Assembly: GCA_035578175.1 (NCBI GenBank)
Contig: JAQMRL010000006.1
Location: 25,066,393-25,130,392, forward strand
From: Catonia carolina
Taxonomy: Eukaryota > Arthropoda > Insecta > Hemiptera > Achilidae
Direction of reading: 5' to 3'
DNA length: 64,000 bases
The stretch's first letter is position 1, and each line of letters opens with the position of its first letter. This document shows positions 248-64,000 of the stretch, in pieces. The translations under genes and the position numbers were made by a program. Under the pieces are notes generated by a model. It saw only the letters and a list, made by a program, of their open reading frames with translations. It had not been told where the DNA came from and did no database searches.

Positions 248-1005
248 TTTTTATTTTTTTTTTTCCGGGGTTCCTACGGCCGGCGCCGCTTCCCGCACTT
301 CAATCTCCATTCTCTTCTATCCTCCCAATCACCCTCATCCATCCCTCTCTCCCTCATGGCTTCCTGTATTCCCTTTTTCCACGTTTTCCTTGGTCTACCT
401 TTCTTCCTTCTGTTGGTTGGGACATAAGACAACATTCTTTTTGGCCACCTCTCATCACCCATTCTCTGCACATGACCATACCATATCAGTTGTCGTCTCT
501 CTATCCTATCCACAATGGTATCTTCTACATGAGCTCTTTTCCTGATGTCGTCATTCCGGATATGGTCCAACCTGGACACTCTACATGAACGGCGCAGAAA
601 GTCCATTTCAATTGCTTTAAGCTGGCTGTCTATTTTTGATGTTATTTGCCAGCACTCTGCCCCATAAGTTGTTATTGGCTCCACAATAGTGTGGTACAAC
701 TGGACTTTTGTATTCATGTGCATTTTTGCAGACCATAAAATCGGGTTCAATTTCCGGATTGCTATTCTCCCTTGCACAATCCTATTTTTAACACCCTTCC
801 TAGTTGAACCGTCTGATGATATGTAGGTCCCCAAGTACTTGATTTCCTTTGTGCTCTTGATAATTTTGTTGTCGACTTGAAGATCATTGGACTCTTCCCC
901 TATAACCAAGTATTCGGTCTTGCTAATATTAATATTCAACCCCCATTCACAGTATTCATCCAAGAGTTTCCTTGTCATATAAGCAATGTCCTCTTCATCG
1001 TTCAT
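248..1005 (-). pseudogene. 5'-truncated RTE-clade retrotransposon (reverse transcriptase C-terminus)
   Basis: A 243-residue open frame (274-1005) encodes the end of a non-LTR reverse transcriptase, starting just after the catalytic FADD motif (EEDIAYM, then EWGLNINISKTEYL). Downstream are RTE-type tail motifs: KYLGTYISSDG, WYGHVQRM and KKGRPRKTW. A T-rich run at 241-263 corresponds to the poly(A) tail. The 13-bp sequence CCTCTAGTTTATT occurs on both sides (235-247 and 1006-1018) and is the target-site duplication. Endonuclease and most RT motifs are missing because of 5' truncation at insertion. The open frame itself is undamaged, which suggests a fairly young insertion. Confidence 0.85.
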
Positions 1006-14587: not shown

Positions 14588-15739
14588 TTTTTTTTTTTTT
14601 GAAGCAAGTTTTGCAACCTTAGAGTCGCTTCTCGCATCCCTTCCGCCATCGCTCCCTATCTCTCCAGTCTCCCTCTCGTAATCCTCTACCTTCCATCTCC
14701 TGTCGAACATTGGTCATCCATATTTTCCTTGGCCTACCTCGCTTCTGATGCTGGTTTGGAGTCCATTCAAAGATTTTCAATGGTATTCTCTCCGTATTCA
14801 TTCGACGAAGGTGGCCATACCATTTTACCTGATTCCTCCCAATGCGACCCAGTATTGTTTCTTTTGCCTGCATCTGCTCTCTTATTACTTCATTCCTTAC
14901 TTTATCTAACAATGATAAGCCTGCGCATCTTCTCCAATACATCATTTCTGCAGCAAGCAATTTTGCAGCATGTCTGCGATCCATGACCCACACCTCAGAT
15001 CCATACGTCAATATTGGTTCTATCATAGCTTGATATATGTTTGTTTTTGTCTTTTTTGTAAGTGTTTTGTTCCACAGAATTGGATGCAGTGCTCTGATAA
15101 TGTTTTTTCCTTTCCCTATCTTCCTCAAAATATCTTCATTGTCCCTACCATCCTCATTTATTGTAACACCCAAGTAATTATATTGCCTCACCATCTTTAT
15201 AGCACCAAAATCTGTCTGTATGTCCTGCCCCTTGCCTCCAATATTCAAATAATTTGTTTTATCCATGTTGACCTCAAGTCCCCACTCCTGAAAATCTCCT
15301 ATCAGTTTGTTCAGCATATATGTCATATCCTGCTGGTCTTCTGCTAATACAACTTGATCATCCGCAAACAATATAGTATATATGGGCCCGTTTCCTGTTT
15401 GTATTCCCATAGGGCTACATTTCCTGATCCACTGTCTGAGAGCACTATTTAAGTAAATCTTGAACAGGGTTGGTGATAGACATGAACCTTGTTTAACGCC
15501 CTTATTTGGGAATATAGCAGCTGATTCTGGACTTCCAAATCCAATAATTGATTTATTGTTTTTATAAATTTCCTTTATAGCGTTTATGTAGACCGCAATT
15601 ACACCAGAATCCCTCATAGCAGTCCATAATTTTTTACGCGGTACAGAATCGAATGCTTTTTTCAAGTCTATAAAGGTGGCATGGAGCTCCAAACCTCTTG
15701 CTAATCTTTTTTCTATCAACTGCTTCAATGTGAAAATAT
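14588..15739 (-). pseudogene. 5'-truncated RTE-clade retrotransposon with intact RT catalytic region
   Basis: The frame (14,619 to the junction near 15,739) encodes about 370 residues of RTE-type reverse transcriptase: FIDLKKAFDSVPR (RT motif A region), GVKQGSCLSPTLFKIYLN, the catalytic FADD (ILFADDQVVLAEDQQDM), NYLGVTINEDG, WYGHLRRM and KRGRPRKIW. A T-run at 14,588-14,602 is the poly(A) tail. TCTGAAACACT at 14,577-14,587 and 15,740-15,750 is the target duplication. The apurinic endonuclease and RT N-terminus are absent, so it could not move by itself. The frame has no stops, implying recent insertion. Confidence 0.85.
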
Positions 15740-16030
15740 TCTGAAACACTCTTTCACCTAAATGAACAATCAAAGACTGACCGACTCGAGGAAATCGAAA
15801 GAAGAATTGGAAGAACCTGGATCAACAAAAAATACAAGGGAGTTGGACAGTGGCGAACCGTACCGAACGAACTGATGTTCAGGGAGCTTAAACCCATTAC
15901 AGATATTATTACTTGATTATTACTTATCACTGATATTACCGTGCGTAAAAGAAGACTGGGGTTCTTTGGTCACATCATGAGAATGCAAGATTCAAGACTC
16001 TTAAAATAACTGGAACTACAATCTCAACTC

Positions 16031-49820: not shown

Positions 49821-50483
49821 TTGGTTTGCACTGGTGCTTTTAGTACATGCTCCTATGAGGCTACCACCGTAGCGGGAAAGGCTCTCCCGGCGGATTTGAA
49901 AGTGCGAGTGCGTGCTGCAATGTGGAGATTGCGAAGGGGGCAGGAAGCCGAGATCTTCGGTGAGAGGTTCCGAGTCGCTCCGGCGGGTCGGGATCAGGAT
50001 CCGGGGGGACCGGGTAATGTTAATGCCGACAATGTTATAAGGTTGCCCTACCCTGCTCTTAAGAAGAGAGTTGAAGCTCTCGCTCTTGAAGCATGGCAGC
50101 GCGAGTGGGACACCGCACATAAGGGAAGGTCTCTGTATGATTTCATCCAGGACCTGGGGGGATGGTATGCCTCAAGTGTTTCATTAAGGACATCGGGTGT
50201 CCGAGTCCTCACTGGTCACGGTGAGTTTGCAGCTTATCTGAAGCGGTTCCGCCTGCTGGCTGATGATTCTTGCGTCTGTGGGGAGGTCCAATCAAATACA
50301 CACTTGCTGTATGATTGCCCCGCTCTTGGGGGGCCCAGACGACAATTGGCCCTGGAGCTTCAAGGTCAAGGGGAAAATTGGCCTCTCACGGAACGTTCGA
50401 GTTTGTACCACGAGGTGCATGCCCGGGCGGTGTGGGGGTTCCTTGACGAGGTAGCTACGTTCTACCGTCGTCACGTAGTATAA
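49821..50483 (+). pseudogene. R1-clade-like retrotransposon, C-terminal coding end
   Basis: A 220-codon frame matches the end of ORF2 in R1/I-group non-LTR elements: YEATTVAGKALPADLKV, then EAWQREWDTAHKGRSLYDF, LTGHGEFAAYL and a C-terminal zinc knuckle CVCGEVQSNTHLLYDCP (Cys-x-Cys, His, Cys). The RT, endonuclease and ORF1 parts are absent, so the element is 5'-truncated. The frame itself is clean and GC-rich, unlike the flanks, which points to a young insertion. A 3' UTR of about 420 bp follows. The start at 49,821 is only the first Met after the truncation point. Confidence 0.75.
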
Positions 50484-50903: not shown

Positions 50904-51218
50904 CAACCCGATTTCTCTAGTGGTTAATTCATCGCCACGAGTCAGCTGTTGAACAGCTGATTTTTGGAGACGAAAGTTTCGTAGTTCCAATCCTAGTAAA
51001 GATAAGATTTAAACTTTAGTAATTTTATATGGATTTAAATACTAGACAGTGGTTACCGGTGTACTTTAATAGTTGGGGTTCAATTACCCATACTCTCTCA
51101 TGAATGATCGGCCTGAGTCTGTACAAGACCACACCTCATTTACGCTGCATACAGATCATGAGATTACTTATGTTCTTAAATTGAACAGATTGCAACGTAC
51201 ACACATTAAGAATTAAAC
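50904..51218 (+). repeat. SINE family E, copy
   Basis: ACCAACCCGATTTCTCTAGT head, GTCAGCTGTTGAACAGCTGA, box B-like AGTTCCAATCC, then the body to CACACATTAAG. Confidence 0.75.
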
Positions 51219-51309: not shown

Positions 51310-52200
51310 TACGAGGGTAGGCTGATAAGTAATGCACACATGCTTGTAGAAGACGAACAAAAAGAAATAGCAAGATGGGGTAAATAACAAATTAAAGTAC
51401 AAATCTTAACCTACCAAATTATCTATTTATTTTTCAATATAGTCACCGTTAAGCATTACACATTTCTCCCAACGTTTAACAAGTTTTTTCATTCCGTCAC
51501 TGAAAAATTCTTCCGACTTTCCTCGAACCCAGGACGCAATAGCTGCCTTCACCTCATTGTCCGAGCTGTAATGATTACCCTTAAGGTCTCTCTTCAGTAG
51601 AGGAAAAAAATAAAAATCGCAAGGCGCAAGGTCGGGAGAATACGGAGGGTGTAAAATTGGTTGAAACTTCAGGTTTCTCAGAGCCTCTCCAGTTGCACGC
51701 GAAGTGTATGGACGAGCATTGTCGTGTTGCAAAATTATTGGCGCCAGGTTGCCTCTAACACGACAAACTCGACGTCGGAGGTGTTTCAGAGTCTGTATAT
51801 ACTGAGCAGAATTTACCGTTGCCCCTCGTTCCAGATAATCAGTCACATAAACTCGGCGAGCATCCCAAAACACAGTCAAAAGAATTTTTTTTGCGGACGG
51901 TTGTGTTTTGAACTTTTTCACAACAGGAGAATGTGGATGACGATATTCAGCGCTCTGCCTTTTTTCTTCGGGATCGTAATGATGAACCCATGACTCGTCC
52001 CCCGTCACAATATTCAAAAGAAAGCCGTCTCCTTCGTCACGGTAGCGCTTCAAAAGTTGTTCACAGCATTCCAATCGACGCTGTTTATTCTCGTCTGTCA
52101 GACGGCGTGGTACCCATCGTGCACAGATTTTACGGTATCCCAATAGTAGAGGAAGAATGTATGTACTGGGACAACCTTGACCTTTGACCACCGGAGATAG
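51310..52200 (-). pseudogene. 5'-truncated mariner transposase with intact DD34D core
   Basis: The terminus at 51,310 (TACGAGGGTAGGCTGATAAG) is a mariner inverted repeat. The minus strand then reads a transposase C-terminal half of about 240 residues ending at 51,427: LGYRKICARWVPRRL, VTGDESWVHHYDPEEKRQS (first Asp), LQHDNARPYTS (second Asp), then 34 residues to HPPYSPDLAPCDFYFF (third Asp), and finally LNGDYIEK. All three catalytic Asp are present and no stop interrupts. The N-terminal helix-turn-helix half and left end are missing. They are replaced near 52,200 by an A-run and the inverted-repeat array, so the open frame's extension into poly-Phe to 52,335 is an artefact. It is not functional for DNA binding. 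Confidence 0.85.
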
Positions 52201-52209
52201 GATGACCTT

Positions 52210-52210
<1 letters not shown>

Positions 52211-52253
<43 letters not shown>
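52211..52253. repeat. 43-base A run
   Basis: An uninterrupted A run at the junction between the mariner fragment and the inverted-repeat array. Further A or T runs lie at about 52,836-52,861, 53,446-53,484, 53,495-53,524, 54,090-54,120 and 54,129-54,152. Confidence 0.9.
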
Positions 52254-52255
<2 letters not shown>

Positions 52256-52277
52256 CGCCAAATATTTTTTTCCCGCC

Positions 52278-53446
52278 AAATTTTCAAACTCAATTTTCTC
52301 CGCAACCGCTGGGTCGATTTTGATGCGGACGGCACCCACGTGACCGAGAGATCGAGATCTACAAGATAAGCCCTAAAACTCGTCGATCTGATAACCAGGT
52401 CACGTGTTACAAGCTATCTCAGGTTCCATAGGGGATACGGCTACGGATTAGGGCTTATCGTGTAGATCTCGATCTCCTGGTCACGTGGGTACCGCCCGCG
52501 TCAAAATCGACCCAGCGGTTGCGGAGAAAAGCAGGTTTGAAAATTTAAAAAAATAAAAAAATGGCAAATTTTCAAACCCGATTTTCTCCGCAACCGCTGG
52601 ACCGATTTTGATGTGGGCGGTACCCACGTGACCAGGAGATCGAGATCTACAAGATAAGCCCTAAATCTCGTCGATCTGATAACCAGGTCACGTGTTACAA
52701 ACGATCTCAGGTTCCATCGGGGATACGGCTACAAATTAGGGCTTATCTTGTAGATCTCGATCTCCCGGTCACGTGGGTACCGCCCGCATCAAAATCGACC
52801 CAGCGGTTGAGGAGAAAATCAAGTTTGAAAATTTGAAAAAAAAAAAAAAAAAAAAAAAAAATCTCGCCATATTTTTTTTTTTTGGGTAAATTTTCAAACT
52901 CGATTTTCTCCTCAACCGCTGGTCCGATTTTGATGCAGGTGGTATCCACGTGACCAGGAGATCGAGATCTACAAGATAAGCCCTAAAACTCGTCGATCCG
53001 ATAAACAGGTCACGTGTTACAAGCTATCTCAGGTTCCATAGGGGATACGGCTACGGATTAGGGCTTATCGTGTAGATCTCGATCTCCTGGTCACGTGGGT
53101 ACCGCCCGCGTCAAAATCGACCCAGCGGTTGCGGAGAAAATCAGGTTTGAAAATTTAAAAAAATAAAAAAATGGCAAATTTTCAAACCCGATTTTCTCCG
53201 CAACCGCTGGACCGATTTTGATGTGGGCGGTACCCACGTGACCAGGAGATCGAGATCTACAAGATAAGCCCTAAATCTCATCGATCTGATAACCAGGTCA
53301 CGTGTTACAAACGATCTCAGGTTCCATCGGGGATACGGCTACAAATTAGGGCTTATCTTGTAGATCTCGATCTCCCGGTCACGTGGGTACCGCCCGCATC
53401 AAAATCGACCCAGCGGTTGAGGAGAAAATCGAGTTTGAAAATTTGG

Positions 53447-53487
<41 letters not shown>

Positions 53488-53491
53488 CGCC

Positions 53492-53525
<34 letters not shown>

Positions 53526-54087
53526 GGTAAATTTTCAAACTCGATTTTCTCCTCAACCGCTGGTCCGATTTTGATGCGGGTGGTATCCACGTGACCAGGA
53601 GATCGAGATCTACAAGATAAGCCCTAAAACTCGTCGATCCGATAAACAGGTCACGTGTTACAAGCTATCTCAGGTTCCATAGGGGATACGGCTACGGATT
53701 AGGGCTTATCGTGTAGATCTCGATCTCCTGGTCACGTGGGTACCGCCCGCGTCAAAATCGACCCAGCGGTTGCGGAGAAAATCAGGTTTGAAAATTTAAA
53801 AAAATAAAAAAATGGCAAATTTTCAAACCCGATTTTCTCCTCAACCGCTGGTCCGATTTTGATGCGGGTGGTATCCACGTGACCGGGAGATCGAGATCTA
53901 TAAGATAAGCCCTAAACCTTGCCGATCTGATAACCAGGTCACGTGTTACAAGCTATCTCAGGTTCCATCGGGGATACGGCTACGGATTAGGGCTTATCTT
54001 GTAGATCTCGATCTCCCGGTCACGTGGATATCACCCGCATAAAAATCGGACCAGCGGTCGAGAAGAAAATCGAGTTTGAAAATTTAC

Positions 54088-54124
<37 letters not shown>

Positions 54125-54330
54125 GCAATTTTTTTTTTTTTTTTTTTTTTTTAATAATTTTTAAACTCGATTTTCTCCGCAACCGCTGGGCCGATTTTGA
54201 TGCGGCTGACACCCACGTGACCGGGAGATCGAGATCTACAAGATAAGCTCTAATCCGTAGCCGTATCCCCGTTAGAACCCGAGATCGCTTGTAACACGTG
54301 ACCCGTGGATCGGATCGACGAGGTTTAGGT
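52278..54330. repeat. Array of inverted-repeat units with higher-order period of about 610-640 bp
   Basis: Units lie at 52,278-52,546, 52,566-52,834, 52,888-53,156, 53,176-53,444, 53,529-53,797 and 53,817-54,085, with a partial unit from 54,156. Each has an arm of about 98 bp running from AAATTTTCAAAC through CAACCGCTGG, CCGATTTTGATG and CACGTGACC to AGATAAGCCCTAA, a loop of about 70 bp with GGTCACGTGTTACAA and GGGATACGGCTAC, and the inverted arm. Odd units resemble odd units and even resemble even, so pairs were amplified. A and T runs surround TCTCGCCATA between pairs. In the last unit the loop (54,254-54,327) is inverted and the right arm is absent. No coding content. Confidence 0.9.
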
Positions 54331-54600
54331 GCCCGCAGGATCCGGACATTCCGTAGAACGCGTTACGTACGGTTTCGGGTCTTAGGTTCTTTCGGGATCC
54401 GAACAATCGGTAATTTTGGTAATTTCGTTTTGAGACACCCTATGCTTTGTTTTATTAGCATTGACGTCATTCGTTTTTTTATCTATGCACGTGCCAGACT
54501 ATTAATTCAGATGATGCAACTTGATTACTGCAAATTTAAATGTACAGTTAATTTAGATGATGCAACTCTATTCTTTTAATTTTGACAATGTCACATGTTG
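54331..54600. other. Unassigned stretch between array and promoter region
   Basis: GC-richer at first (about 54,330-54,430), then AT-rich. AGATGATGCAACT occurs twice about 44 bp apart (near 54,510 and 54,555). No gene seen. Confidence 0.35.
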
Positions 54601-54624
54601 TTTGTTACGAGTCACGCTGCTTTA

Positions 54625-54775
54625 CTAGGATTTGAACCAGGAACCTTCATCTCCGAAAATCAGCTGTTAAACAGCTGATAATCAGCTGTTAAACAGCTGA
54701 TAAACAGCTGTTAAAAATCAGCTGATAAACAGCTGTTAAAAATCAGCTGATAAACAGCTGATTTTGACGACGATA
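54625..54775 (-). repeat. SINE family E head, reversed, with amplified CAGCTG palindrome
   Basis: TTACTAGGATTTGAACCAGG (complement of the family E box B region) is followed by the head's palindromic insert. That insert is expanded from two to nine CAGCTG sites (54,661 to 54,760) and then returns to head sequence, ATTTTGACGACGA. The rest of the SINE body is missing. Confidence 0.75.
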
Positions 54776-54820
54776 CAAGTATAAAAGGTCGCAGTTTTCC
54801 CATCGAATCATACCATCAGT
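54661..54820 (+). promoter_or_regulatory. Polymerase gene promoter: nine E-box-type sites, TATA box and initiator
   Basis: Nine CAGCTG hexamers start at 54,661, 54,672, 54,683, 54,694, 54,705, 54,719, 54,730, 54,743 and 54,755. The first five are spaced exactly 11 bp. TATAAAAG begins at 54,780. TCATACC at 54,808-54,814 fits the YYANWYY initiator, with its A at 54,810, 30 bp from the TATA start. A TCAGT arthropod-type initiator at 54,816-54,820 is an alternative. CAGCTG is a binding site type for bHLH factors; that use here is inference. Confidence 0.6.
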
Positions 54821-54881
54821 AGCATCTGCCTGATAGTTCTCCCGACAACCCTACCTGTCAGCTCTTCGAGTTTATTGAAAG

Positions 54882-55331
54882 GTGAGGCATCTCATACTTT
54901 AATAAATTTTATAAATATAAACTTAGAATTGTTTCATTATATATAAACATAGAATTTTTTAATAAAATATAAACTTAGTGATGAGCATACAGTCGAACCG
55001 CTGAGGGAGACCTCCAGACTGCTCGATGAGCTGTTGGGAGCACCTAAAATATACCGGTGATAGACCTAGCAGACGATGACCGGGCGGAAGTGCCGGTCCA
55101 GCGGTACAACCAACGGCACAACCAGCGAGGCAAGCGGAAGTAAAAAATCATACGTCAAATCGCTACGAATCCGCTAAAAAATGACGTATGCATATTCCAT
55201 CGTATTATTAGTATCAGTATTAGTATTATATTTATATTAATAATAAAATAAATGTATTAAGCTGTTTATCATTGTTTTTCATTTCAAAGTACCATACTTT
55301 CCCCGTTTAACTAAAACATATGGTTTTGCAG
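54882..55331 (+). other. Predicted 5' UTR intron of the polymerase gene
   Basis: Donor AAAG|GTGAGG at 54,881/54,882. Acceptor GGTTTTGCAG ending at 55,331, preceded by the pyrimidine-rich CTTTCCCC. The polymerase ATG at 55,337 follows after five bases. Removing the 450-base intron also removes an out-of-frame ATG at about 55,319 that would otherwise precede the real start. It is not backed by transcript data. Confidence 0.55.
54977..55143 (+). pseudogene. Degenerate small ORF inside the predicted intron
   Basis: A GC-rich patch reads EHTVEPLRETSRLLDELLG in one frame and, past a frame change near 55,050, VIDLADDDRAEVPVQRYNQR ending RGKRK-stop in another. Composition matches the viral genes and not the AT-rich flanks. 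A perfect inverted repeat, CATACGTCA/TGACGTATG, lies just after (55,149-55,157 and 55,182-55,190). It may be a dead small viral gene. No family recognised. Confidence 0.3.
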
Positions 55332-55336
55332 GAAAT

Positions 55337-58300
55337 ATGGAAAGGCAAGCCAAGCGAATCAGATTGGAACAAGCTGCAGAGTCTGGCACCTTTTGCGTCT
55401 TGGAAAATGCGTTCGGCTGCAACCTCCGAACGTATTACTACAAGAATGACAACAGCATCTTCAAGGACGTGACGGTGCTCCTTATCCACCTGAGGGAAGA
55501 GATGGAGTCGTTGCTCAAGGAGATGTCGACCTCCCTAAGACCGTTTAAATTTAACATCTTAGTGGAGTGCACGTACGAGAAGGCGACGACGGGAGAGGTG
55601 CAAGACGTGGGGTTCAAGACCGTCAACACCTGCGTCTTTCCCGGGTCGGATATAGGAGCGCTTGTAGACATGTGCATCCAAAAACTTGTGGATGAGGAAG
55701 CAGAGTTCTTGGGAAAGGGGAGCGGATGGTCTTTGATGACGGTCGATGGGATCCTTCTCAGGATCAGCCGATATAGACCGCTCAGAGGCTCATCGTACCT
55801 ACCTCTTCAACCTTTCTTAAAGAACCGCAAAGCGGTTATCAACGTCAAGAACCGTGACGAAAGGTGTTTCAAGTGGGCTATCCTGTGTAAACACGTGTCA
55901 GGGCCTCACAGGGAAATAATCGATAAACGGTACGACGCCCTGCTTGACAAGTACGATTTCGGTATGGTAGATTTCCCCACTTCCCTCAGTGAAGTAAAGG
56001 CCTTCGCCAAGGCTAACGGGGTGTCCGTCAACGTGTACGGGATAGCCGAAAAAGAGGTAATAGAACCTCTAGTCGTCGCTGATGTCGAAAAGGATGACCA
56101 CTTCGATCAACTCCTGGTCGCAGAGGGTGACGCTCAGCATTATTGTTTCATCAAAAATTTTAATCGACTCATCAGTTCACAGCTGACGAAAAATGAACAC
56201 AAAATCGACGTATGCAAGCGGTGTTTCACCTTCTATAACGACACCCCTAAGGGTAGGGAGAAGATGGCGACCCACCGCGAGTACTGTATAGAGAACTCTC
56301 CGCGCAGTTTCACGATGTCCAAACCTAATGATGACACTCCTCCGATGATGAAATTCGAAAACTACAATCATATATTCCCCATCCCAATGGACGACCCGCT
56401 CCGAGACTCATCGTACCTACCTCTTCCGCCATTCGTAAAGAACCGCAAAGCGGTTATTAACGTTAAAAACCAAGACAATAGGTGTTTCAAGTGGGCCATC
56501 CTATGCAAACATGTGTCAGGCCCTCACAGGGGTAGAATCGACGGACGTTACGCTGCTCTGCTTAGCAAGTACGATTTCAGCATGGTAGAGTTCCCCACTT
56601 CCCTCAGTCAAGTAAAGGCCTTCGCCAAGGCCAACGGAGTGTCGGTGAACGTATATGGGATAGCAGATAAAGAGGTAATAGAACCTCTAGTCGTTACTAA
56701 TGTCGAAAAGGACGATCACTTCGACCTCCTTCTAGTTACAAATGGCGATGTTCAGCATTATTGCCTCATCAACAATTTTAGTCGGTTAATCAGTCTACAG
56801 CTGACAAAACATAATGGTCAAATCGATGTATGCAAGAGGTGTTTCGCTTTCTACAACGTTGACGCTAAGGGTCGTGAGGCGATGACTGTTCACAGAGAGT
56901 ACTGTGTGGACAATCCGCCATGCAGGATCACCCTACCCAAACCTAATGATGACGGTACTCCTCCAGTGATGAAATTCAAAAATTACCATCACATATTCCC
57001 AGTCCCAATAGTTGTGTATGCCGATTTTGAGTGTATACTGAAACCCACTGGAGGATACCTCCCCAAACCGACATCTTCTTTCACTATAGCCACGGAGCGC
57101 CACGTTCCTATGAGCTACGGGATGTATTTTGTAGTTGACCCGTCGCTTCCCGACGACATCGCCCAGTTAGTGCCGAAAACACCCTTGCTTTATAGAGGCC
57201 CTGACGCAACCGCCCATTTTATGCAGACCCTGAAAGAAATAGTCGAGCGGGTAGCCGCAGCGTCAGACCGTAACGTTCCTATGGTCTTTACGGCTCAGGA
57301 CGAGCTTTCGTTCAAAGCCGCCATAAGATGTCAGATGTGCGATGTAGCGTTCGGGCCTAAGGTGAGACCCAACAGGGATCATTGTCATCTGACTGGAAAG
57401 TATAGGACCGCTCTCTGTTCAAAATGCAATCTGATGAGACAGAACCAGAAGTTCTTGCCCGTCTTCATCCACAACTCGTCCAATTATGACTCGCATTTCA
57501 TAGTCAGGCAGCTCGGCTATGACGAGAAGAAGATATCCGTCATCCCCAATTCTACGGAGAAGTACGTTTCCTTCTCCAAAAACATAACCAAGACGCTAGC
57601 CGTGAGGTTTGTAGACACTTTTAGGTTCATGGCCAGCAGCCTGAGCGCCCTGGTAGGCAACCTACCTCCCGAAGGCTTCGCCCATACCGAGTCTTTCTTT
57701 AACGGGACGCAGCTGCCCCTAGTGAAGAGGAAAGGCGTGTACCCTTACGAGTATACCGACTCATGGGAGAGACTCGATGAGACGGAATTACCTCCTCAGG
57801 AAGCATTCTATAGCAGCCTCACCGGGGAGCACATTTCAGACGATGACTATCGTCATGCTCTGAAAGTGTGGGACAGTTTTAACATCCGCACGCTGGGGGA
57901 GTACTCTGACTTGTACCTCAAGTGCGATGTCCTCCTGTTAGCCGACGTCTTTGAGAATTTCAGGTCTCTATGCAGGAAGGAATACGGACTCGATTGCGCC
58001 CATTACTTTACTGTCCCAGGTTTTTCTTTCGACGCCATGCTCTACAAGACGCGAGTAGAACTGGAACTCATAACCGATTATGATATGTACATGTTTCTGG
58101 AGAGAGGGATCCGAGGAGGAATCTCTGTATGCGTCAAGAAACATGCCAAGGCCAACAACCCTTATGTGGAAGGTTTCGACCCCGAGCTACCCTCCAACTA
58201 CCTCATGTATGTGGACGCGAACAACCTATACGGCTGGGCGATGAGCGGGAACCTCCCCTACAAGGACTTTTCCTGGGTTGAAGACGAGGAGAGAAAGATC

Positions 58301-59464
58301 GCGATAGGATCGAATGTAGGCATCATCCCTGACGACTCCTCGCTGGGCTTCTTCCTCGAGGTGGACGTGGAGTACCCTACAGACGCGGAGACGCAGGACT
58401 CGCACAACGACCTTCCGTTCATGGCGGACAACGCGACCCCTCCCGGTGCCAGAAACCCCAAACTACTGACCACCCTGCAAAACAAGACCAAGTACGTTTG
58501 CCACTACGCCCTCCTTAAGCAGGCTATCGCGCACGGACTAAAAGTCACCAAAGTACACAGGGTTCTGCAGTTCCGACAGTCTGCATGGCTCAAACCCTAT
58601 ATAGACCTGAACACCCTTAACAGACAGTCGGCCCGCAATGCTTTCGAGAAGGACTTCTTCAAACTGCTGAACAATGCCGTCTTCGGCAAGTGCATGGAGA
58701 ACGTCCGTAAACGCATGAACCTGGAGCTGGTTAGCAACTCGAAGAGGTTAATGAAGCTGGTCGCCAAGCCCTCCTTCAAAGACAGGATCATTTACGACGA
58801 GTCGCTATGCGCTGTCGAGCTGTCCAAGACCTCGGTCCGTTTAGATAAACCTATTTACGTAGGCGCTACAGTCCTGGACTCCAGTAAGACCTTAATGTAT
58901 TCATTTCATTACGATGTCATGAAGAAGAGGTACGGGTCGAAAATCGACCTCCTGTACATGGATACAGACAGCTTCTTCTACGACATCGAGACTCCAGACT
59001 TTTACCGTGACATGAGGGACCCAGAATTCAAGACCTTCTTCGACACCTCCGACTATCCCCCGACACACCCGTGCCATTCCACTACCAACAAAAAAGTGCT
59101 CGGTAAGTTCAAAGACGAGTGCAACGGCATCCCCATCGCAGAGTTTATAGGGATGAGAGCAAAACTGTACACTTTCAGGACTGGCGAGGGTATTGTCAAG
59201 AAGAAGGCTAAAGGCGTCAAAAAGAATGTGGTCAAGAAAGACATCACGTTCGACGACTACAGAAAGTGTCTCGAAGATCCCTCGTTGTGGTTGTACAGGG
59301 ACATGAAGCTATTTCAATCCCGCAAGCATGTAGTCAGCACTGTATTGACGAGCAAGCTTGCGCTGTGCAACTACGATGATAAGCGCGTCGCCGTAGATGC
59401 CATCCACACCCTAGCATACGGACATAGGAACATTCCGCAGGAGCTCCAAGAAATTATAGGTTAG
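55337..59464 (+). CDS. Protein-primed-type family B DNA polymerase with duplicated N-terminal module
   Basis: A 1375-residue intact DNA polymerase of the polinton/adintovirus group, expected to copy a linear genome from a protein primer in the nucleus. The N-terminal module (about 148-353) is repeated in tandem (about 354-558). Each copy has a CFKWAILCKHV block and a zinc-finger-like set, C293/C296/H313/C317 in copy 1 and C499/C502/H519/C523 in copy 2. The 3'-5' exonuclease follows: Exo I YADFEC (D563, E565), Exo II HNSSNYDSH (D718), Exo III LKCDVLLLADVF. An endonuclease VII-like metal site lies between them (C665, C668, D681-H-C-H684, C694, C697). Polymerase motifs: A YVDANNLYG (D960), B KLLNNAVFGK (1109-1118), C YMDTDS (D1209, D1211). 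All catalytic residues are present. Start chosen at the first Met after the predicted acceptor. Confidence 0.93.
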   Translation: MERQAKRIRLEQAAESGTFCVLENAFGCNLRTYYYKNDNSIFKDVTVLLIHLREEMESLLKEMSTSLRPFKFNILVECTYEKATTGEVQDVGFKTVNTCVFPGSDIGALVDMCIQKLVDEEAEFLGKGSGWSLMTVDGILLRISRYRPLRGSSYLPLQPFLKNRKAVINVKNRDERCFKWAILCKHVSGPHREIIDKRYDALLDKYDFGMVDFPTSLSEVKAFAKANGVSVNVYGIAEKEVIEPLVVADVEKDDHFDQLLVAEGDAQHYCFIKNFNRLISSQLTKNEHKIDVCKRCFTFYNDTPKGREKMATHREYCIENSPRSFTMSKPNDDTPPMMKFENYNHIFPIPMDDPLRDSSYLPLPPFVKNRKAVINVKNQDNRCFKWAILCKHVSGPHRGRIDGRYAALLSKYDFSMVEFPTSLSQVKAFAKANGVSVNVYGIADKEVIEPLVVTNVEKDDHFDLLLVTNGDVQHYCLINNFSRLISLQLTKHNGQIDVCKRCFAFYNVDAKGREAMTVHREYCVDNPPCRITLPKPNDDGTPPVMKFKNYHHIFPVPIVVYADFECILKPTGGYLPKPTSSFTIATERHVPMSYGMYFVVDPSLPDDIAQLVPKTPLLYRGPDATAHFMQTLKEIVERVAAASDRNVPMVFTAQDELSFKAAIRCQMCDVAFGPKVRPNRDHCHLTGKYRTALCSKCNLMRQNQKFLPVFIHNSSNYDSHFIVRQLGYDEKKISVIPNSTEKYVSFSKNITKTLAVRFVDTFRFMASSLSALVGNLPPEGFAHTESFFNGTQLPLVKRKGVYPYEYTDSWERLDETELPPQEAFYSSLTGEHISDDDYRHALKVWDSFNIRTLGEYSDLYLKCDVLLLADVFENFRSLCRKEYGLDCAHYFTVPGFSFDAMLYKTRVELELITDYDMYMFLERGIRGGISVCVKKHAKANNPYVEGFDPELPSNYLMYVDANNLYGWAMSGNLPYKDFSWVEDEERKIAIGSNVGIIPDDSSLGFFLEVDVEYPTDAETQDSHNDLPFMADNATPPGARNPKLLTTLQNKTKYVCHYALLKQAIAHGLKVTKVHRVLQFRQSAWLKPYIDLNTLNRQSARNAFEKDFFKLLNNAVFGKCMENVRKRMNLELVSNSKRLMKLVAKPSFKDRIIYDESLCAVELSKTSVRLDKPIYVGATVLDSSKTLMYSFHYDVMKKRYGSKIDLLYMDTDSFFYDIETPDFYRDMRDPEFKTFFDTSDYPPTHPCHSTTNKKVLGKFKDECNGIPIAEFIGMRAKLYTFRTGEGIVKKKAKGVKKNVVKKDITFDDYRKCLEDPSLWLYRDMKLFQSRKHVVSTVLTSKLALCNYDDKRVAVDAIHTLAYGHRNIPQELQEIIG

Positions 59465-59641
59465 TCTCCTTCTAGCACACCCCGTTAGTCCCCGCATATG
59501 TCTACTAGCCGACTTTATCCGACCTCAAAACGTCGAACCGCACCAGTATTGGAGTTTCATCAGTATTATTAGTCGTAAGAACTTAAGAGCTCATCGCCAT
59601 ACATGTATTCGTTTTCATCTTCATCATCATCATCTTATATC

Positions 59642-59656
59642 AATAAATGTTTTATT
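59642..59656. terminator. Back-to-back poly(A) signals of convergent units
   Basis: AATAAA (59,642-59,647, + strand) is separated by TGT from TTTATT (59,651-59,656), which is AATAAA on the minus strand. It lies about 180 bases after the polymerase stop and on the far side of the minus-strand block, so each convergent transcript meets its own signal here. Confidence 0.6.
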
Positions 59657-59990
59657 CTTTTATGAATCTGTCTTTTATTTCTTGTAACCTGAACCTCCTA
59701 TAGTACCTAAAATACATGCAGGCAGTATCGGTGCTCGATTCCTGGGAGGGTCTGTACCCGACAGATCCTCGCATCGTGCTGCGCTTTCGCTTCACGATCG
59801 ACAAAAGCCCTCAGGCTTCGGCAAGACTTATATCTACAGGTGTAAAGGTGTTGAAATGACGACACGTTTTGAAAATAAGTTTAATACATATATTCTGAAA
59901 TCAAAACACTAGACTAATGTTACAAAAGTCCAGACTCTACAAGCAGCCGTACATGTAGGAAAAAACGAATCGAGGTTACAAGACGCGGCT
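59657..59990. other. Intergenic stretch between convergent viral units
   Basis: No firm gene. A 47-codon plus frame (59,716-59,859, MQAVSVLDSWEG start) and open minus frames exist in GC-richer sequence but have no supporting context. Confidence 0.3.
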
Positions 59991-60243
59991 TTACTGGCTG
60001 ACGCGACAGTTAAAAATGCATTGCTTGCAGTGTTTTCTCTTCTTGGTAATGGTCCATTCGTCTTCGCCGTAGTCGCTCTCCTGTTGAGCGTGTTCTTCGC
60101 AGGGCATCTCCGACAGTAGTTCTTTATCATTCTTGAGGTATAGCGGTAAGGCTACCTTCTACCGAGAGGACTACCAGCTCCTTGATGACCGTCTCGTAAT
60201 CCGAAGGTCTGATGACCTGAAAATCTACAATGAAGGAAGGCAT
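59991..60243 (-). pseudogene. Small Cys/His protein split over two frames
   Basis: From ATG at 60,243 the minus strand reads 38 codons (MPSFIVDFQVIRPSDYETV, then IKELVVLSVEG) to TGA at 60,127. An overlapping frame then continues (LKNDKELLSEMPCEEH) to TAA at 59,991 and ends with a basic, Cys-rich tail (KRKHCKQC, then C near the end). The spaced C-x2-H and C-x2-C could bind a metal. The order suggests one small gene broken by a single-base change, downstream of the capsid gene. Function unknown. A real two-ORF arrangement cannot be excluded. Confidence 0.4.
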
Positions 60244-60277
60244 GTTGTTGCGCGCGACGAGACCTAGCGCACACGGG

Positions 60278-61480
60278 TTAATTTATCCTCCTGACGGCTC
60301 CTGTTAAAGGCGTGTACTGAAGGATGCAATCTGTGATTATCAGGCAGTAGGCGGAGGTATTGGCAGGGATGTTGTTTTTACACCCGATCTCGATCCTGAT
60401 GTCTATGGCGCCGGTGTTCAGCGACTCGTTCTGCTTCGAGCAGTCGATAAAGAAGAGGGGGACTTTGGTCTTGAAGGTCGAGAAATCGATTAGGGGGTGG
60501 TTGACCTGTCCTCCGTAGTAGACCTTATGGAACCGCTTAAAGTTTTCGTAAAACATCGAGTACTCTCCCTTCGCGTTTTCGTACGGGTAGTACACGGAAT
60601 TGAGGTAGAGTTTGATGTCCTGGAGCTCGCAGTGGTCGAAATGAGTTGATACCGCCGTCTTGGTCTTCTTGTCCGTCTGCAGTCCTACTATGACGTAGCG
60701 GGGCTTATCCGCCTGGGAGGAGGACTTGACGGTCCAGATCACGTCGGTGCTCTGCGGTAAGACGGGGTACTCGTACAGGTTCCATCTGCGGAAGGCCATC
60801 GATATGGGTGCATCCTGATCCACCATCCTGAGCAACGGGAGTCTGTGCTGGTCGGAAAGCCTGACGTAAGGCATCTTCCACTCCACTTTGGAAAGAGTCA
60901 GCTTGTAGTCCTTGCCTGCGGGGACCGCTACGGTGCGGTCGTCGGTAGCCGACCTTAGCAGGATAAGTTCCAGCTTGGCGTTGACTATTATGCGGCGGTA
61001 ATCCTCGCAGAATCCCATGATCCTCTTCAGCGGGACGTGGGCCGTAAGCCTACCTGTGGTGCTGTTGGCGATAGCCGTTACGGCGTCCTTGTTCCACCCT
61101 TCGACGTCTATAGAGTGTTGTTCCCCGTACCTGAAGGACGGAATATTTCTCAAGGCCGTCGTTACGCCGACGTTTCGCACCCTGTCCACTTCGATACCGT
61201 TCATCTCCAGCCTTATTTCTTCAAACAGGAAAGCGGGCCAGTTGTCAGAAAGAGCCAGGGCCGCATCCAAAGTACCGTCGGACGCCGAAAGTTTCACGTC
61301 CACAAACAGCAGGCTGTCGCAAGGTAGGGTGTACACGTCCTGTTGGTTCACGGGTATCCTTATCTCGTCGTTGTTGTTGAAAGTCGACGACGCGTACGGA
61401 GTGTGAGTATGCATCTCCATGCCTATGATGGCGTCGTCCGCTACGGCGTTAGAGGATCCCACGTCTATTATATAGCTCAT
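60278..61480 (-). CDS. Major capsid protein-like (double jelly-roll type)
   Basis: A 400-residue intact protein, rich in beta-type sequence and free of signal peptide or membrane segments. Blocks I associate with capsid-like proteins of arthropod polinton/adintovirus-type elements include WPAFLFEEIRLEMNGIEVDR (residues about 84-103), PRYVIVGLQT, a HCELQDIKLYLNSVYYP strand pair, LFFIDCSKQ and a C-terminal AYCLIITDCILQYTPL. The family forms trimeric hexons of an icosahedral shell. It is shorter than the vertebrate-type adintovirus capsid proteins. Its ATG overlaps the stop of the upstream 56-codon ORF (ATGA), so it may be translated by reinitiation, or from its own transcript. Assignment is by motif memory and context; no structure comparison was possible. 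Confidence 0.7.
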   Translation of the reverse strand: MSYIIDVGSSNAVADDAIIGMEMHTHTPYASSTFNNNDEIRIPVNQQDVYTLPCDSLLFVDVKLSASDGTLDAALALSDNWPAFLFEEIRLEMNGIEVDRVRNVGVTTALRNIPSFRYGEQHSIDVEGWNKDAVTAIANSTTGRLTAHVPLKRIMGFCEDYRRIIVNAKLELILLRSATDDRTVAVPAGKDYKLTLSKVEWKMPYVRLSDQHRLPLLRMVDQDAPISMAFRRWNLYEYPVLPQSTDVIWTVKSSSQADKPRYVIVGLQTDKKTKTAVSTHFDHCELQDIKLYLNSVYYPYENAKGEYSMFYENFKRFHKVYYGGQVNHPLIDFSTFKTKVPLFFIDCSKQNESLNTGAIDIRIEIGCKNNIPANTSAYCLIITDCILQYTPLTGAVRRIN

Positions 61481-61647
61481 TTCTGCAGCACGATGAAACC
61501 CAACGATCTTAGAAAAGCAGCGTTATCTGAGGAGAGTCTCTTCTTTTTCACTTCACCAAGTGGCGGGTCGAGCTCTACAGGACGAATGTTCTTCGCTCCG
61601 TCCGGTACGGTTCTTTTATAACCCTCTTCCAGGTAGACTAACCCCAT
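61477..61647 (-). CDS. Conserved-looking 56-residue protein between penton-like and capsid genes
   Basis: The ORF starts at ATG 61,645-61,647 (overlapping the end of the penton-like frame by 10 bases) and stops in an ATGA overlap with the capsid ATG. It begins MGLVYLEEGYKRTVPDG, has a proline-rich acidic middle and ends NAAFLRSLGFIVLQK. The FLRSLGF ending resembles short proteins I associate with this position in related arthropod elements; that is recollection, not a search. A TATAAAA string on the minus strand (61,614-61,620) lies about 140 bases before the capsid start and could be a promoter for it. Role unknown, possibly minor virion or cement. Confidence 0.55.
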   Translation of the reverse strand: MGLVYLEEGYKRTVPDGAKNIRPVELDPPLGEVKKKRLSSDNAAFLRSLGFIVLQK

Positions 61648-62617
61648 CGCGTACGTCTTTTAAGGTGAAGCCTGAGGCTGATGACTTCGTTCTGAAAGCT
61701 TATCGGTCTTCCGTCCTGATCCACCACAGAGACGGTCAGTCTTCCTATCCTCGAAGTGTTTACGGGTAGGTAGATGACGTTCTTGGGCACTTCGATTATC
61801 TTATAACCCCTTTCCACCTGCGGGAAGAACTCGTGCAGGGTATGTCCTTCGGCTCCGTTAGTGTACGAGCCCCGCACGATGTTGCAAGTCAACCGGATGG
61901 CGTTTACGGCCGTAATGTTGACGGGACGCTGAGACGTGTACCATTTATAAGGTTCGAGGATCGTCGCATCGAACCCCAGCAACTCTCTGATGGTTCCGGG
62001 TACGGTAAAGTCTACCTTTTCTCCGCAGAATATCGAGCACTTTAGTGTGGTGGGGTCTACGACCATGTTAAGTCTTGGGAGCGGACGGCATTCCGTCTTT
62101 GATCCCTTTGACGTCTCCTTCTTCGCATCGCTTAAGGCTTTCGCTTTCGCTTCCTCCTCCGCCCTTTTCGCGGCCCTTATTTTCGCCGCATTCTCCAATC
62201 TCTTAAGGACCTCATCGAGAGGGTCGGTACTGGATCTCTCTTTCCTTTTTCCCTTCTGTTCCTTTTCCGCTCCTTCGAGAGCTTTTGGTACTTGAGGGAT
62301 CCTGCGTCTTCAACATCGGTACGGTTATCGTCTTGCTCCGCGTCTCTGCTGCTGTCGCAGTTCACTCCGCCGTACATCTCCAACATCTCGTATTTGATCT
62401 TTGAGTGGATGTCGTCAATCTCGTACATGCCTTCAGGCAGCTCCACCTTCATCCCGTCGCCGAAGCAGAACAGGTTGTTCACCCCTTTCCGCACGTTGGG
62501 TATGTTGTTGTAGCTCATGAAATCTACCAGTCCTATCTCCCACTGGCCCTCTCCGAGGTCTATGGGAGGGAAGTAATCGACCTCGATCGTAGAGCTCTTA
62601 CCGCTTAGGCACAACAT
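61638..62617 (-). pseudogene. Penton/minor capsid-like protein split over two overlapping frames
   Basis: The N-terminal frame (62,617 to 62,177) starts MLCLSGKSSTIEVDYFPPI and contains GQWEIGLVDFMSYNNIPNV. The C-terminal frame (open from about 62,307, first Met 62,198, stop 61,638) contains NMVVDPTTLKCSIFCGEKV, a GAEGHTLHEFFPQVERGYKI block, NVIYLPVNTSRIG and DQDGRPISFQNEVISLRLHL. These are parts of one jelly-roll-like capsid vertex protein in related elements. The second frame is -1 relative to the first, and both run through a Lys/Arg/Glu-rich linker (about 62,180-62,300). No canonical slippery heptamer in the right phase is evident, so a single-base indel is the simplest reading. The ORF overlaps the protease end by 20 bases. 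Confidence 0.6.
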
Positions 62618-63014
62618 CTTTACCCGATAGAAACTCTAGGCACAGATGTCCGCAGACGACTGAATCAAAGTCCTGCCTCCTGGCGTAATTATATCTTATG
62701 ATGTTCGGTCCGTCTTCTCCGTTCTCGAGGTACCTTACCAGCTCTACGGGAGGCCTCAGGTTACCGTAGCTGTCAAAGTACTCTACGACCGCACCGGTCT
62801 TCCTGTAACATACCCAGTGGGTCCCTTCGTTCCTCGCGCTGTCCAAGTTGACGATGGCTGATTCGTTTTCGTAGGGTCTATGGGGGAGCGTGTCACGCAT
62901 AAACACCCCTCTAAAGTTCGAGATTTCGAGTGCGTCGGCAGCCGCCATCAATTGACTATCGGACAGGGGTTTGTTCGGAAGTTTCAACGAAGTTTTTTTT
63001 TCCTTAGTCCGCAT
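62598..63014 (-). CDS. Adenain-like cysteine protease
   Basis: A 138-residue protein with the full adenovirus-protease (C5) catalytic layout: His66 in GTHWVCY, Asp81 in YFDSYGN, Gln114 and Cys121 in VVCGHLCLEFL, with Gln-x6-Cys spacing as in adenain. An upstream block, NFRGVFMRDTLP, is conserved in related element proteases. In viruses this enzyme matures virion proteins after assembly. It is shorter than adenovirus adenain but has no visible break. Its start overlaps the end of the upstream PLA2-type gene by 31 bases and its end overlaps the penton-like gene, consistent with a tightly packed late block. Confidence 0.85.
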   Translation of the reverse strand: MRTKEKKTSLKLPNKPLSDSQLMAAADALEISNFRGVFMRDTLPHRPYENESAIVNLDSARNEGTHWVCYRKTGAVVEYFDSYGNLRPPVELVRYLENGEDGPNIIRYNYARRQDFDSVVCGHLCLEFLSGKDVVPKR

Positions 63015-63604
63015 CCCGCGTGCTGCGTAGGGTACGGTTTCAAATACAGTCCCTCACCTCGTCGGGTAGTGCTACGGTTAGTCCTGCGGGTGGTGCGACG
63101 GGTAGTCTTGCTAGAGGTCTTACGAACGGTCTTCCTACGGGCAGTCTTCCTACGGGCGGTCTTCCCGGTCTGCCTTCGCTTGATCCTCCCGCCGAACTTG
63201 CTTTTAGCTTTCATTATGTTGGTCACCGCCCAGGCGGCCGCTTTCTCCGCTATGCTGGAGTCGGACGCTCTCACCCTCTCCCAGGCTCTATCTGCTAACA
63301 AGCGGTCTGCTTCGGCCCTGCCCGCCGAGTCTTTGCGGTTGTGGTAGGCTATGTCGTGCTGTTTGCACGCGGCGTCGAGAGGGTTGATGCCCGGGTCTCC
63401 TCTTCTCAATCTCTTCTGCAGGTCCGTCCCCGGTCCGCAGTACTGATAGCCCGGTATGTGGAGTTCCACGGGTAAAACGTCTATCGCTTTGTTCAATACG
63501 GTTCCTATGACGTTCTCTGCAGCTCCTAAGACTCCGCTCGCGATACTCCCTACCAGTCCGGCTCCTGAATGCGATCTGCTGCGAAACGTGTTGCATCTCC
63601 CCAT
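62984..63604 (-). CDS. Virion core-like protein with parvovirus-type phospholipase A2 motif and basic tail
   Basis: A 206-residue protein. Residues 15-40 form a Gly/Ala-rich hydrophobic stretch. Residues 55-59 (YCGPG) match the PLA2 calcium-binding loop, and His83-Asp84 in ACKQHDIAY match the catalytic pair, as in parvovirus VP1 unique regions. The C-terminal third (about 138-182) is almost only Lys, Arg and Thr, like adenovirus core or pX proteins that bind DNA. In parvoviruses this PLA2 helps virions leave endosomes; the same role here is inference. The gene is intact, 41 bases downstream of the fibre-like gene, and overlaps the protease start. Confidence 0.8.
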   Translation of the reverse strand: MGRCNTFRSRSHSGAGLVGSIASGVLGAAENVIGTVLNKAIDVLPVELHIPGYQYCGPGTDLQKRLRRGDPGINPLDAACKQHDIAYHNRKDSAGRAEADRLLADRAWERVRASDSSIAEKAAAWAVTNIMKAKSKFGGRIKRRQTGKTARRKTARRKTVRKTSSKTTRRTTRRTNRSTTRRGEGLYLKPYPTQHAGCGLRKKKLR

Positions 63605-63645
63605 TTTAAGGTCGGAATGAAGCTCGAGGACCTGTGTTTCCTTAT

Positions 63646-64000
63646 TTATGATGCGCCTTTTCCCTCCAGACGTGACGATACGTCCTCAAACTCTTTGCGC
63701 AGCTTTTGGACCTCATCGCGCATTTTCAACATTTCGTCGACTCGCTCGTCTTTGACGGGATCTGAAACTTTCATCTTATCGGCGTGGGAGGAAAGGTACT
63801 CTTTCAAGTACTTGAGGTTGATGGCGTCTTCTTCTTCGATCGGATCTCCTACTTGAGTCATCCTGCGACCGTAAAGGTCGTAGTAAGGTTCGCCACCGCC
63901 CTCCTCCAAGACCTCGAGGACACCGTAATCTTCAGCGTAAGCTTGGATGAGCCTCATGCATTCGTTGACGTTGACCGCGTCCGTATACGACTGGGCTACG
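63646..64000 (-). CDS. Fibre-like or coiled-coil virion protein, C-terminal part
   Basis: The frame is open from the right window edge to the stop at 63,646, so the gene is partial and the internal Met at 63,957 is not its start. Visible features are two TDAVN/EDAIN-type turns (TDAVNVNECM and EEDAINLKYLKEYL) of the kind spaced along trimeric fibre stalks, a GRRMTQVGDP link and a C-terminal helix with heptad character (DEMLKMRDEVQKLRKEFED) that could trimerise. It heads the visible minus-strand block. A spike or vertex-associated role is inferred from motif and context only. Confidence 0.5.
   Translation of the reverse strand, partial: VAQSYTDAVNVNECMRLIQAYAEDYGVLEVLEEGGGEPYYDLYGRRMTQVGDPIEEEDAINLKYLKEYLSSHADKMKVSDPVKDERVDEMLKMRDEVQKLRKEFEDVSSRLEGKGAS

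What the first reader, a model, noticed from the sequence alone, without database searches (positions are those of the whole stretch)
54600..64000. Largely intact polinton/adintovirus-like element in an arthropod genome
PolB, adenain-like protease, capsid-like, penton-like and PLA2/core-like genes occur together with GC-rich, mostly unbroken frames inside AT-rich, decayed host DNA. This gene set is known from polintons and adintoviruses. The intactness suggests a recent endogenisation or an element that still moves or forms particles.
Basis: partly seen in the sequence, partly recalled or inferred. Interest (0 to 1): 0.9.

Follow-up and report, generated by a model that had tools for sequence, protein, structure and literature searches.

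The report
Recently multiplied Polinton in a planthopper
An 18.5-kb virus-like mobile element of the Polinton (Maverick) kind, with capsid, polymerase and integrase genes, lies in what looks like a planthopper genome in which close copies sit at many different places; sequence changes among the copies suggest that the capsid genes were needed while it spread, which makes this a good place to ask whether Polintons form virus particles.

The parts
52139..52144 (.). Left copy of the 6-bp target-site duplication (CCCAAT); the right copy is at L009 6632-6637
51427..52138 (-). C-terminal part of the interrupted mariner-like transposase gene (target); the N-terminal part is at L009 6638-7074
   Evidence: PF01359 48.7 bits, HTH_48 29.5 bits on the right half, 389-codon open frame across the empty site
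52145..54760 (+). Left terminal inverted repeat: AG-starting 38-bp end, 288-bp tandem units (52277-54102), inner 247-bp part (54514-54760) with CAGCTG repeats; the inverted partner is at L009 4115-6631
   Evidence: inner part 97.6% identical, outer parts about 93% identical to the right TIR; about 70 bases at 54446-54513 have no partner
55337..59464 (+). Family-B DNA polymerase, 1375 aa, with a duplicated N-terminal segment (618 nt apart; OTU-like by recall) and an endonuclease VII-like segment
   Evidence: PF02945 29.7 bits; exo and pol motifs; 38% identical over 1055 aligned positions to a PF03175-positive PolB of the same genome; repeat D5
60278..61480 (-). Major capsid protein, double jelly roll, 400 aa
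61638..62617 (-). Penton-like (single jelly roll) gene, frameshifted in this copy: ORFs 62177-62617 and 61638-62198
   Evidence: homologues; fold of homologue P0121
62598..63014 (-). Adenain/Ulp1-like cysteine protease, 138 aa (His, Asp, Cys motif)
   Evidence: motif only; no Pfam hit
62984..63604 (-). Phospholipase A2-domain protein with a basic tail, 206 aa
   Evidence: PF08398 52.3 bits; YCGPGT and HD motif
63646..63957 (-). Short ORF, 103 aa from its first ATG in the window; the open frame continues to the window end
   Evidence: no family above its cut-off

Best explanation
It is a full-length Polinton (Maverick) of a family that multiplied very recently in the germline of what is probably an achilid planthopper. 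Inferred cycle: its protein-primed polymerase copies a linear form from the inverted ends; the retrovirus-like integrase, with a possible chromodomain, joins the AG...CT ends to new sites, making a 6-bp duplication; the DJR capsid, penton, protease, PLA2 protein and packaging ATPase form a particle by which the element reaches new germ cells or individuals. Shown: gene set, ends, duplications, copy number, recency, purifying selection on capsid genes among sampled copies, and mosaic structure. Inferred: particle formation, reinfection and protein priming. The window copy itself is a recent but partly broken insertion.
Against: No particle, transcript or read evidence could be examined. MCP copies were ranked by protein score, which biases against amino-acid changes; the 20 lower-ranked copies give 0.17 rather than 0.08, and the unscored candidates were not looked at. 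MCP variants seen only once are also constrained (24 N to 22 S), so the contrast of shared and single variants is not significant for MCP alone (p 0.09); the shared protease variants (3 N to 4 S) do not reach significance either (p 0.06, with an assumed expectation). Copies are related, so these tests overstate independence. 25 of the 47 paired elements contain no MCP among the 104 scored hits; some may lack one. No relative was found in viral contigs. The window copy's penton-like gene is frameshifted.
Confidence: 0.8

Rival explanations
1. A purely intragenomic self-synthesising transposon: it jumps inside the germline nucleus without particles, and the capsid genes are passengers or serve another role.
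For: All copies seen are chromosomal, and the 11 examined have clean TSDs. No exogenous relative was found in IMG/VR.
Against: MCP dN/dS (0.093) is no higher than PolB dN/dS (0.114) in the same 10 elements, and penton and protease are also below 0.3. Passengers should drift.
Confidence: 0.15
2. Repeated endogenisation of a free-living adintovirus-like virus: many germline infections by a circulating virus population, with little copying inside the genome.
For: Low dN/dS in capsid genes; PolB and capsid modules with different histories, as expected from recombination among co-infecting viruses.
Against: Groups of up to 6 copies share an identical MCP and some copies differ by 0-5 positions over 4.2 kb, which fits copying within one lineage at least as well. 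No exogenous genome was found.
Confidence: 0.25
3. Old, dead insertions whose similarity is due to an assembly artefact, haplotype duplication or gene conversion.
For: The window copy has a frameshift, and 2 of 34 scored PolB copies carry stops.
Against: Ten sampled insertions have ten different TSDs; 103 of 104 scored MCP frames have no stop; the interrupted mariner halves still read through in one frame of 389 codons.
Confidence: 0.03

Closest known systems
Polintons/Mavericks (Kapitonov and Jurka 2006, Pritham 2007, recalled; Krupovic 2014, PMC4028283, passages read)
   Same: PolB, RVE integrase, packaging ATPase, cysteine protease, DJR MCP and penton upstream of it; inverted ends; 6-bp TSD; size of 15-20 kb (recalled)
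   Different: 400-aa MCP; terminal repeats built largely of 288-bp tandem units; tandemly doubled N-terminal segment of PolB; PLA2-domain gene. Whether any of these is unique was not surveyed.
Intact vertebrate Mavericks (PMC8097293, passages read)
   Same: Copies with 6-bp TSDs and AG/CT end motifs; core genes under purifying selection; particles not observed
   Different: Insect host. That paper reports 134 intact elements in 17 vertebrate species; here one genome holds 47 paired elements among the first 100 of 177 listed ends (about 85 by extrapolation), not all checked for intact genes
Adintoviruses and MELD viruses (PMC11071296, passages read; BFVD entries)
   Same: Integrase with a possible C-terminal chromodomain; PolB and late genes on opposite strands (recalled for adintoviruses); a BFVD MELD-virus protein of 420 aa is a fold match, rank 12
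   Different: MCP fold nearer to PBCV-1 and virophages than to adenovirus hexon; similarity to adintovirus hexons at sequence level not tested
Insect Mavericks near bracovirus loci in parasitoid wasps (PMC2646287, passages read; a Cotesia bracovirus protein is rank 23, with poor superposition)
   Same: Insect host, Maverick genes
   Different: The array described there lacks terminal repeats; here elements with both ends in a recent burst

Membership tests
Polinton/Maverick | Family-B polymerase of the protein-primed type | tested here: met
   Exo and pol motifs in order (meanings recalled); 38% identity to a PF03175-positive PolB. Its own PF03175 match did not appear at E <= 1. Protein priming itself not tested.
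Polinton/Maverick | Retrovirus-like (RVE) integrase | tested here: met
   L009 3093-4043 -, PF00665 36.9 bits, cut-off 32.6
Polinton/Maverick | Genome-packaging ATPase | tested here: met
   L009 2343-3056 -, PF04665 24.1 bits, cut-off 22.8; Walker A-like GPSNCGKT
Polinton/Maverick | Adenain/Ulp1-like cysteine protease | tested here: inconclusive
   No Pfam hit; His-Asp-Cys motif only, recalled
Polinton/Maverick | Double jelly-roll MCP | tested here: met
Polinton/Maverick | Single jelly-roll penton upstream of the MCP | tested here: met
Polinton/Maverick | Terminal inverted repeats, AG...CT ends and 6-bp TSD | tested here: met
   11 of 11 elements examined, one of them in a local tandem repeat; control 0 of 90
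Adintovirus | PolB with N-terminal OTU-like domain | tested here: inconclusive
   Duplicated N-terminal segment with Cys/His motifs; no OTU family hit
Adintovirus | Hexon recognisable by BLASTP against adintovirus hexons | not tested
   No adintovirus protein sequence at hand; by fold an adintovirus entry is rank 16
Adintovirus | RVE integrase with C-terminal chromodomain | tested here: inconclusive
   rve met; Chromo 20.5 bits, E 4.4e-4, below the cut-off of 25.1
Adintovirus | Free virus genome or virion | not testable with these tools
   Only chromosomal copies seen

The most novel reading that the evidence does not exclude
The family is still active: in living planthoppers it makes particles and infects the germline, and its capsid module is swapped among elements with different polymerases, so that one recent capsid type has swept through an older set of polymerase backgrounds.
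Probability: 0.35. Interest if true: 0.85.

Novelty: new member of a known kind. Interest (0 to 1): 0.58.

Why it matters
Whether Polintons are transposons or viruses is open, because their particles have not been observed (stated in the abstract of PMC8097293). A single insect genome with many near-identical copies and selected capsid genes makes the question directly testable: polymorphic insertions, expression and nuclease-protected DNA can be looked for in living insects.

Tried and rejected
Rejected: the left boundary at 54600 (the tandem repeats are part of the TIR; the mariner gene is split at 52145). Rejected: that the two penton-like ORFs are separate overlapping genes or programmed frameshifting (29 of 29 fetched siblings have one frame). 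Rejected: the burst as segmental duplication (ten sampled insertions with ten different TSDs). Led nowhere: viral contig scans with the MCP sequence and with alignment A1 (5 and 42 pattern matches, none confirmed); PDB sequence searches with MCP and PolB (only rows with E 0.55 or worse); PHROGs (endonuclease VII and transposase rows, otherwise weak rows of unknown function); a first paper search with too narrow terms (0 papers); a first script with wrong MCP offsets, which failed. Pfam and PHROGs gave no family for the 435-aa ORF. The 288-bp unit was not found in window 1-52000 nor in L060, L061, L102, and PolB, MCP and integrase gave no tblastn match in window 1-52000. No OTU match to the PolB N-terminus in Pfam. 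Not done because the genome search machine did not answer: a genome-wide integrase tally and a DNA search for empty mariner sites (last try). I saw no report of this burst or of Polintons in Achilidae, but that rests on search listings only, and Achilidae was not itself a search term.

Full report
Place and host. The window is C101:25066393-25130392 of a 1.47-Gb assembly in 142 contigs. A 360-aa piece of COX1 from a 30-kb contig (C33) is 91-92% identical to its five best hits, which bear the names Paracatonidia, Magadhaideus, Plectoderini, Betatropis and 'Achilidae gen. 1'. Paracatonidia and Betatropis were looked up and are Achilidae; the last name says so itself; for the other two the family is recalled. 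The host is therefore probably an achilid planthopper. The assembly is unnamed and I could not confirm the species.

Boundaries. Comparing the left 14 kb with the next 10 kb to the right (L009) showed a 247-bp inner terminal inverted repeat at 97.6% identity and, outside it, 288-bp tandem units in inverted orientation on both sides, about 93% identical in the longest pieces. The outermost shared bases are AGTAGAGGAAGAATGTATG... and their complement. They sit between two copies of CCCAAT, and on either side lie the two halves of a mariner-like transposase gene. With the flanks joined over one CCCAAT, 389 codons stay open across the junction and read ...RVGFIIEQLGYRKICARWVPRRLTDEN.... The frame also stays open (391) with both CCCAAT copies kept, since six bases are two codons, so the open frame shows the gene and the site but not the duplication. 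The element is 18,487 bp, window 52145 to L009 6631. The finding's coordinates miss its first 2.5 kb and its last 6.6 kb.

State of this copy. The MCP, PolB, protease-like, PLA2, ATPase and integrase frames are open. The penton-like gene is in two overlapping frames, whereas 29 of 29 other fetched copies have one frame of 332-352 codons between stops (326-340 from the first ATG). Sibling L060 has a 262-aa gene between PolB and MCP, and 536 bp of it are missing in the window copy. Six of the 30 fetched copies (L010-L014, L030), the window included, show the full 665-bp PolB end within their fixed flank, as expected of the shorter form; L025 also lacks the insertion, but its PolB end aligns over only about 100 bases.

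Copies. The 38-bp terminus (up to 3 mismatches) occurs 88 times forward and 89 times reverse, with 0 in the reversed-pattern control. Of the 100 places listed, 94 form 47 convergent pairs: 46 of 12.6-21.9 kb and one of 35.4 kb, not examined. Six are unpaired within the list. 22 of the 47 contain one of the scored MCP hits and 25 do not. About 85 elements is an extrapolation. The MCP search scored 104 of 615 candidates: all 98-100% identical over 400 residues, 103 without a stop. The PolB search scored 34 of 1225 candidates: 92-100% identical, 32 without stops. Ten elements chosen from the list, short and long, all have perfect 6-bp duplications, all different; in one of them (L066/L067) the flanks are a tandem repeat, so its match says little. 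One pair of copies is identical over 4,200 bases, and 15 of 30 have a sibling with at most 5 differences over at least 4.1 kb. With a mutation rate of about 3e-9 per site and generation (recalled), that means at most about 200,000 generations for those pairs.

Selection. dN/dS among copies is 0.12 for MCP (50 of the 104 scored; 0.077 for the 30 best by protein score, 0.17 for 20 lower-ranked), 0.22 for the penton-like gene (29 copies, window left out because frameshifted), 0.29 for 100 protease codons (30 copies), 0.117 for 400 PolB codons (21 copies, two with one stop), 0.185 for integrase (9 sequences; 5 of 13 fetched were left out because the BLAST alignment began two bases in) and 0.137 for ATPase (12 sequences; 2 of 13 left out because the alignment ended 5 and 9 bases short). 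Variants shared by several copies are more often silent (29 N to 43 S, pooled over MCP, penton and protease) than variants seen once (43 N to 29 S; Fisher p 0.03), as expected if selection acted during spread and relaxed after insertion. For MCP alone that contrast is not significant (p 0.09) and the MCP singletons are still constrained (24 N to 22 S). Protease singletons are 10 N to 1 S, its shared variants 3 N to 4 S (p 0.06 against an assumed 3.2 to 1). Copies are related, so the p values are only a guide. In 10 matched elements MCP is as constrained as PolB (0.093 and 0.114). A capsid gene that was mere ballast should not be. In cyprinid fish Mavericks the same kind of pattern, with far lower values, was read as evidence for particles (PMC8097293, passages).

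Mosaic structure. Against the element that holds L060 and L017, the window copy is 84-97% identical in 250-bp blocks through PolB and 96-100% in the blocks from 59500 on, past the PolB stop. Other copies are less clean: L020 falls to 88.6% in one block of the PolB-MCP gap. In 10 matched elements the silent divergence of the PolB core is 7.8 times that of MCP, and larger in 42 of 45 pairs. The capsid module is thus younger than the polymerases it is joined to, by recombination or gene conversion. The direction is inferred.

Literature. PMC4028283, PMC11071308, PMC11071296, PMC8097293, PMC2646287 and PMC6327564 were read in passages only. Mavericks are among the superfamilies said to be present in all species investigated in PMC6327564. 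So the kind is known. What is notable is the recency and copy number, the tandem-repeat TIRs, and the signal that capsid genes were selected during a burst in an insect.

A second element. PF03175 hits elsewhere in the genome include 11 convergent PolB pairs 7.2-11.7 kb apart, with no divergent and no tandem pairs, among 72 of the 74 places (two rows of one locus were left out when transcribing). In the one read, the arms are 99.96% identical over at least 4.7 kb around a centre of about 400 bp, and tblastn found no integrase or ATPase like the window's in the 20 kb fetched (its right outer part was not fetched). It is listed below as a lead.

Noticed in passing
L061 1-10000 and L102 7650-9998 (C133:13767000-13786999): A different element: two PolB genes in inverted arms, 99.96% identical over at least 4.7 kb, around a centre of about 400 bp, with small ORFs (one BIR-like by eye) and no integrase or ATPase like the window's in the 20 kb fetched. 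Eleven convergent PolB pairs occur among 72 of 74 places; only this one was read. A giant palindromic PolB element would deserve its own study.
   Followed up: partly
L060 5173-5961 -: 262-aa gene of unknown function between PolB and MCP in a sibling element; largely missing in the window copy.
   Followed up: partly
window 55337-59464 against L060 515-4642: Patchy divergence inside PolB (84-97% in neighbouring 250-bp blocks) suggests gene conversion among polymerase types.
   Followed up: partly
L009 1484-2332: 32-bp tandem repeat, about 27 copies, between the 435-aa ORF and the ATPase gene.
   Followed up: no
window 50942-50964 and 54661-54762: The CAGCTG-rich repeat of the inner TIR has a look-alike 3.7 kb to the left, outside the element.
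   Followed up: no
window 274-1005 -, 14619-15773 -, 49821-50483 +: Open frames that look by eye like retrotransposon reverse-transcriptase remnants.
   Followed up: no
G000 C111:941162-942502 and C33:13111-14441: COX1-like stretches on a chromosome-size contig (probable nuclear mitochondrial DNA) and on a 30-kb contig where COX1 is split in two matches.
   Followed up: no
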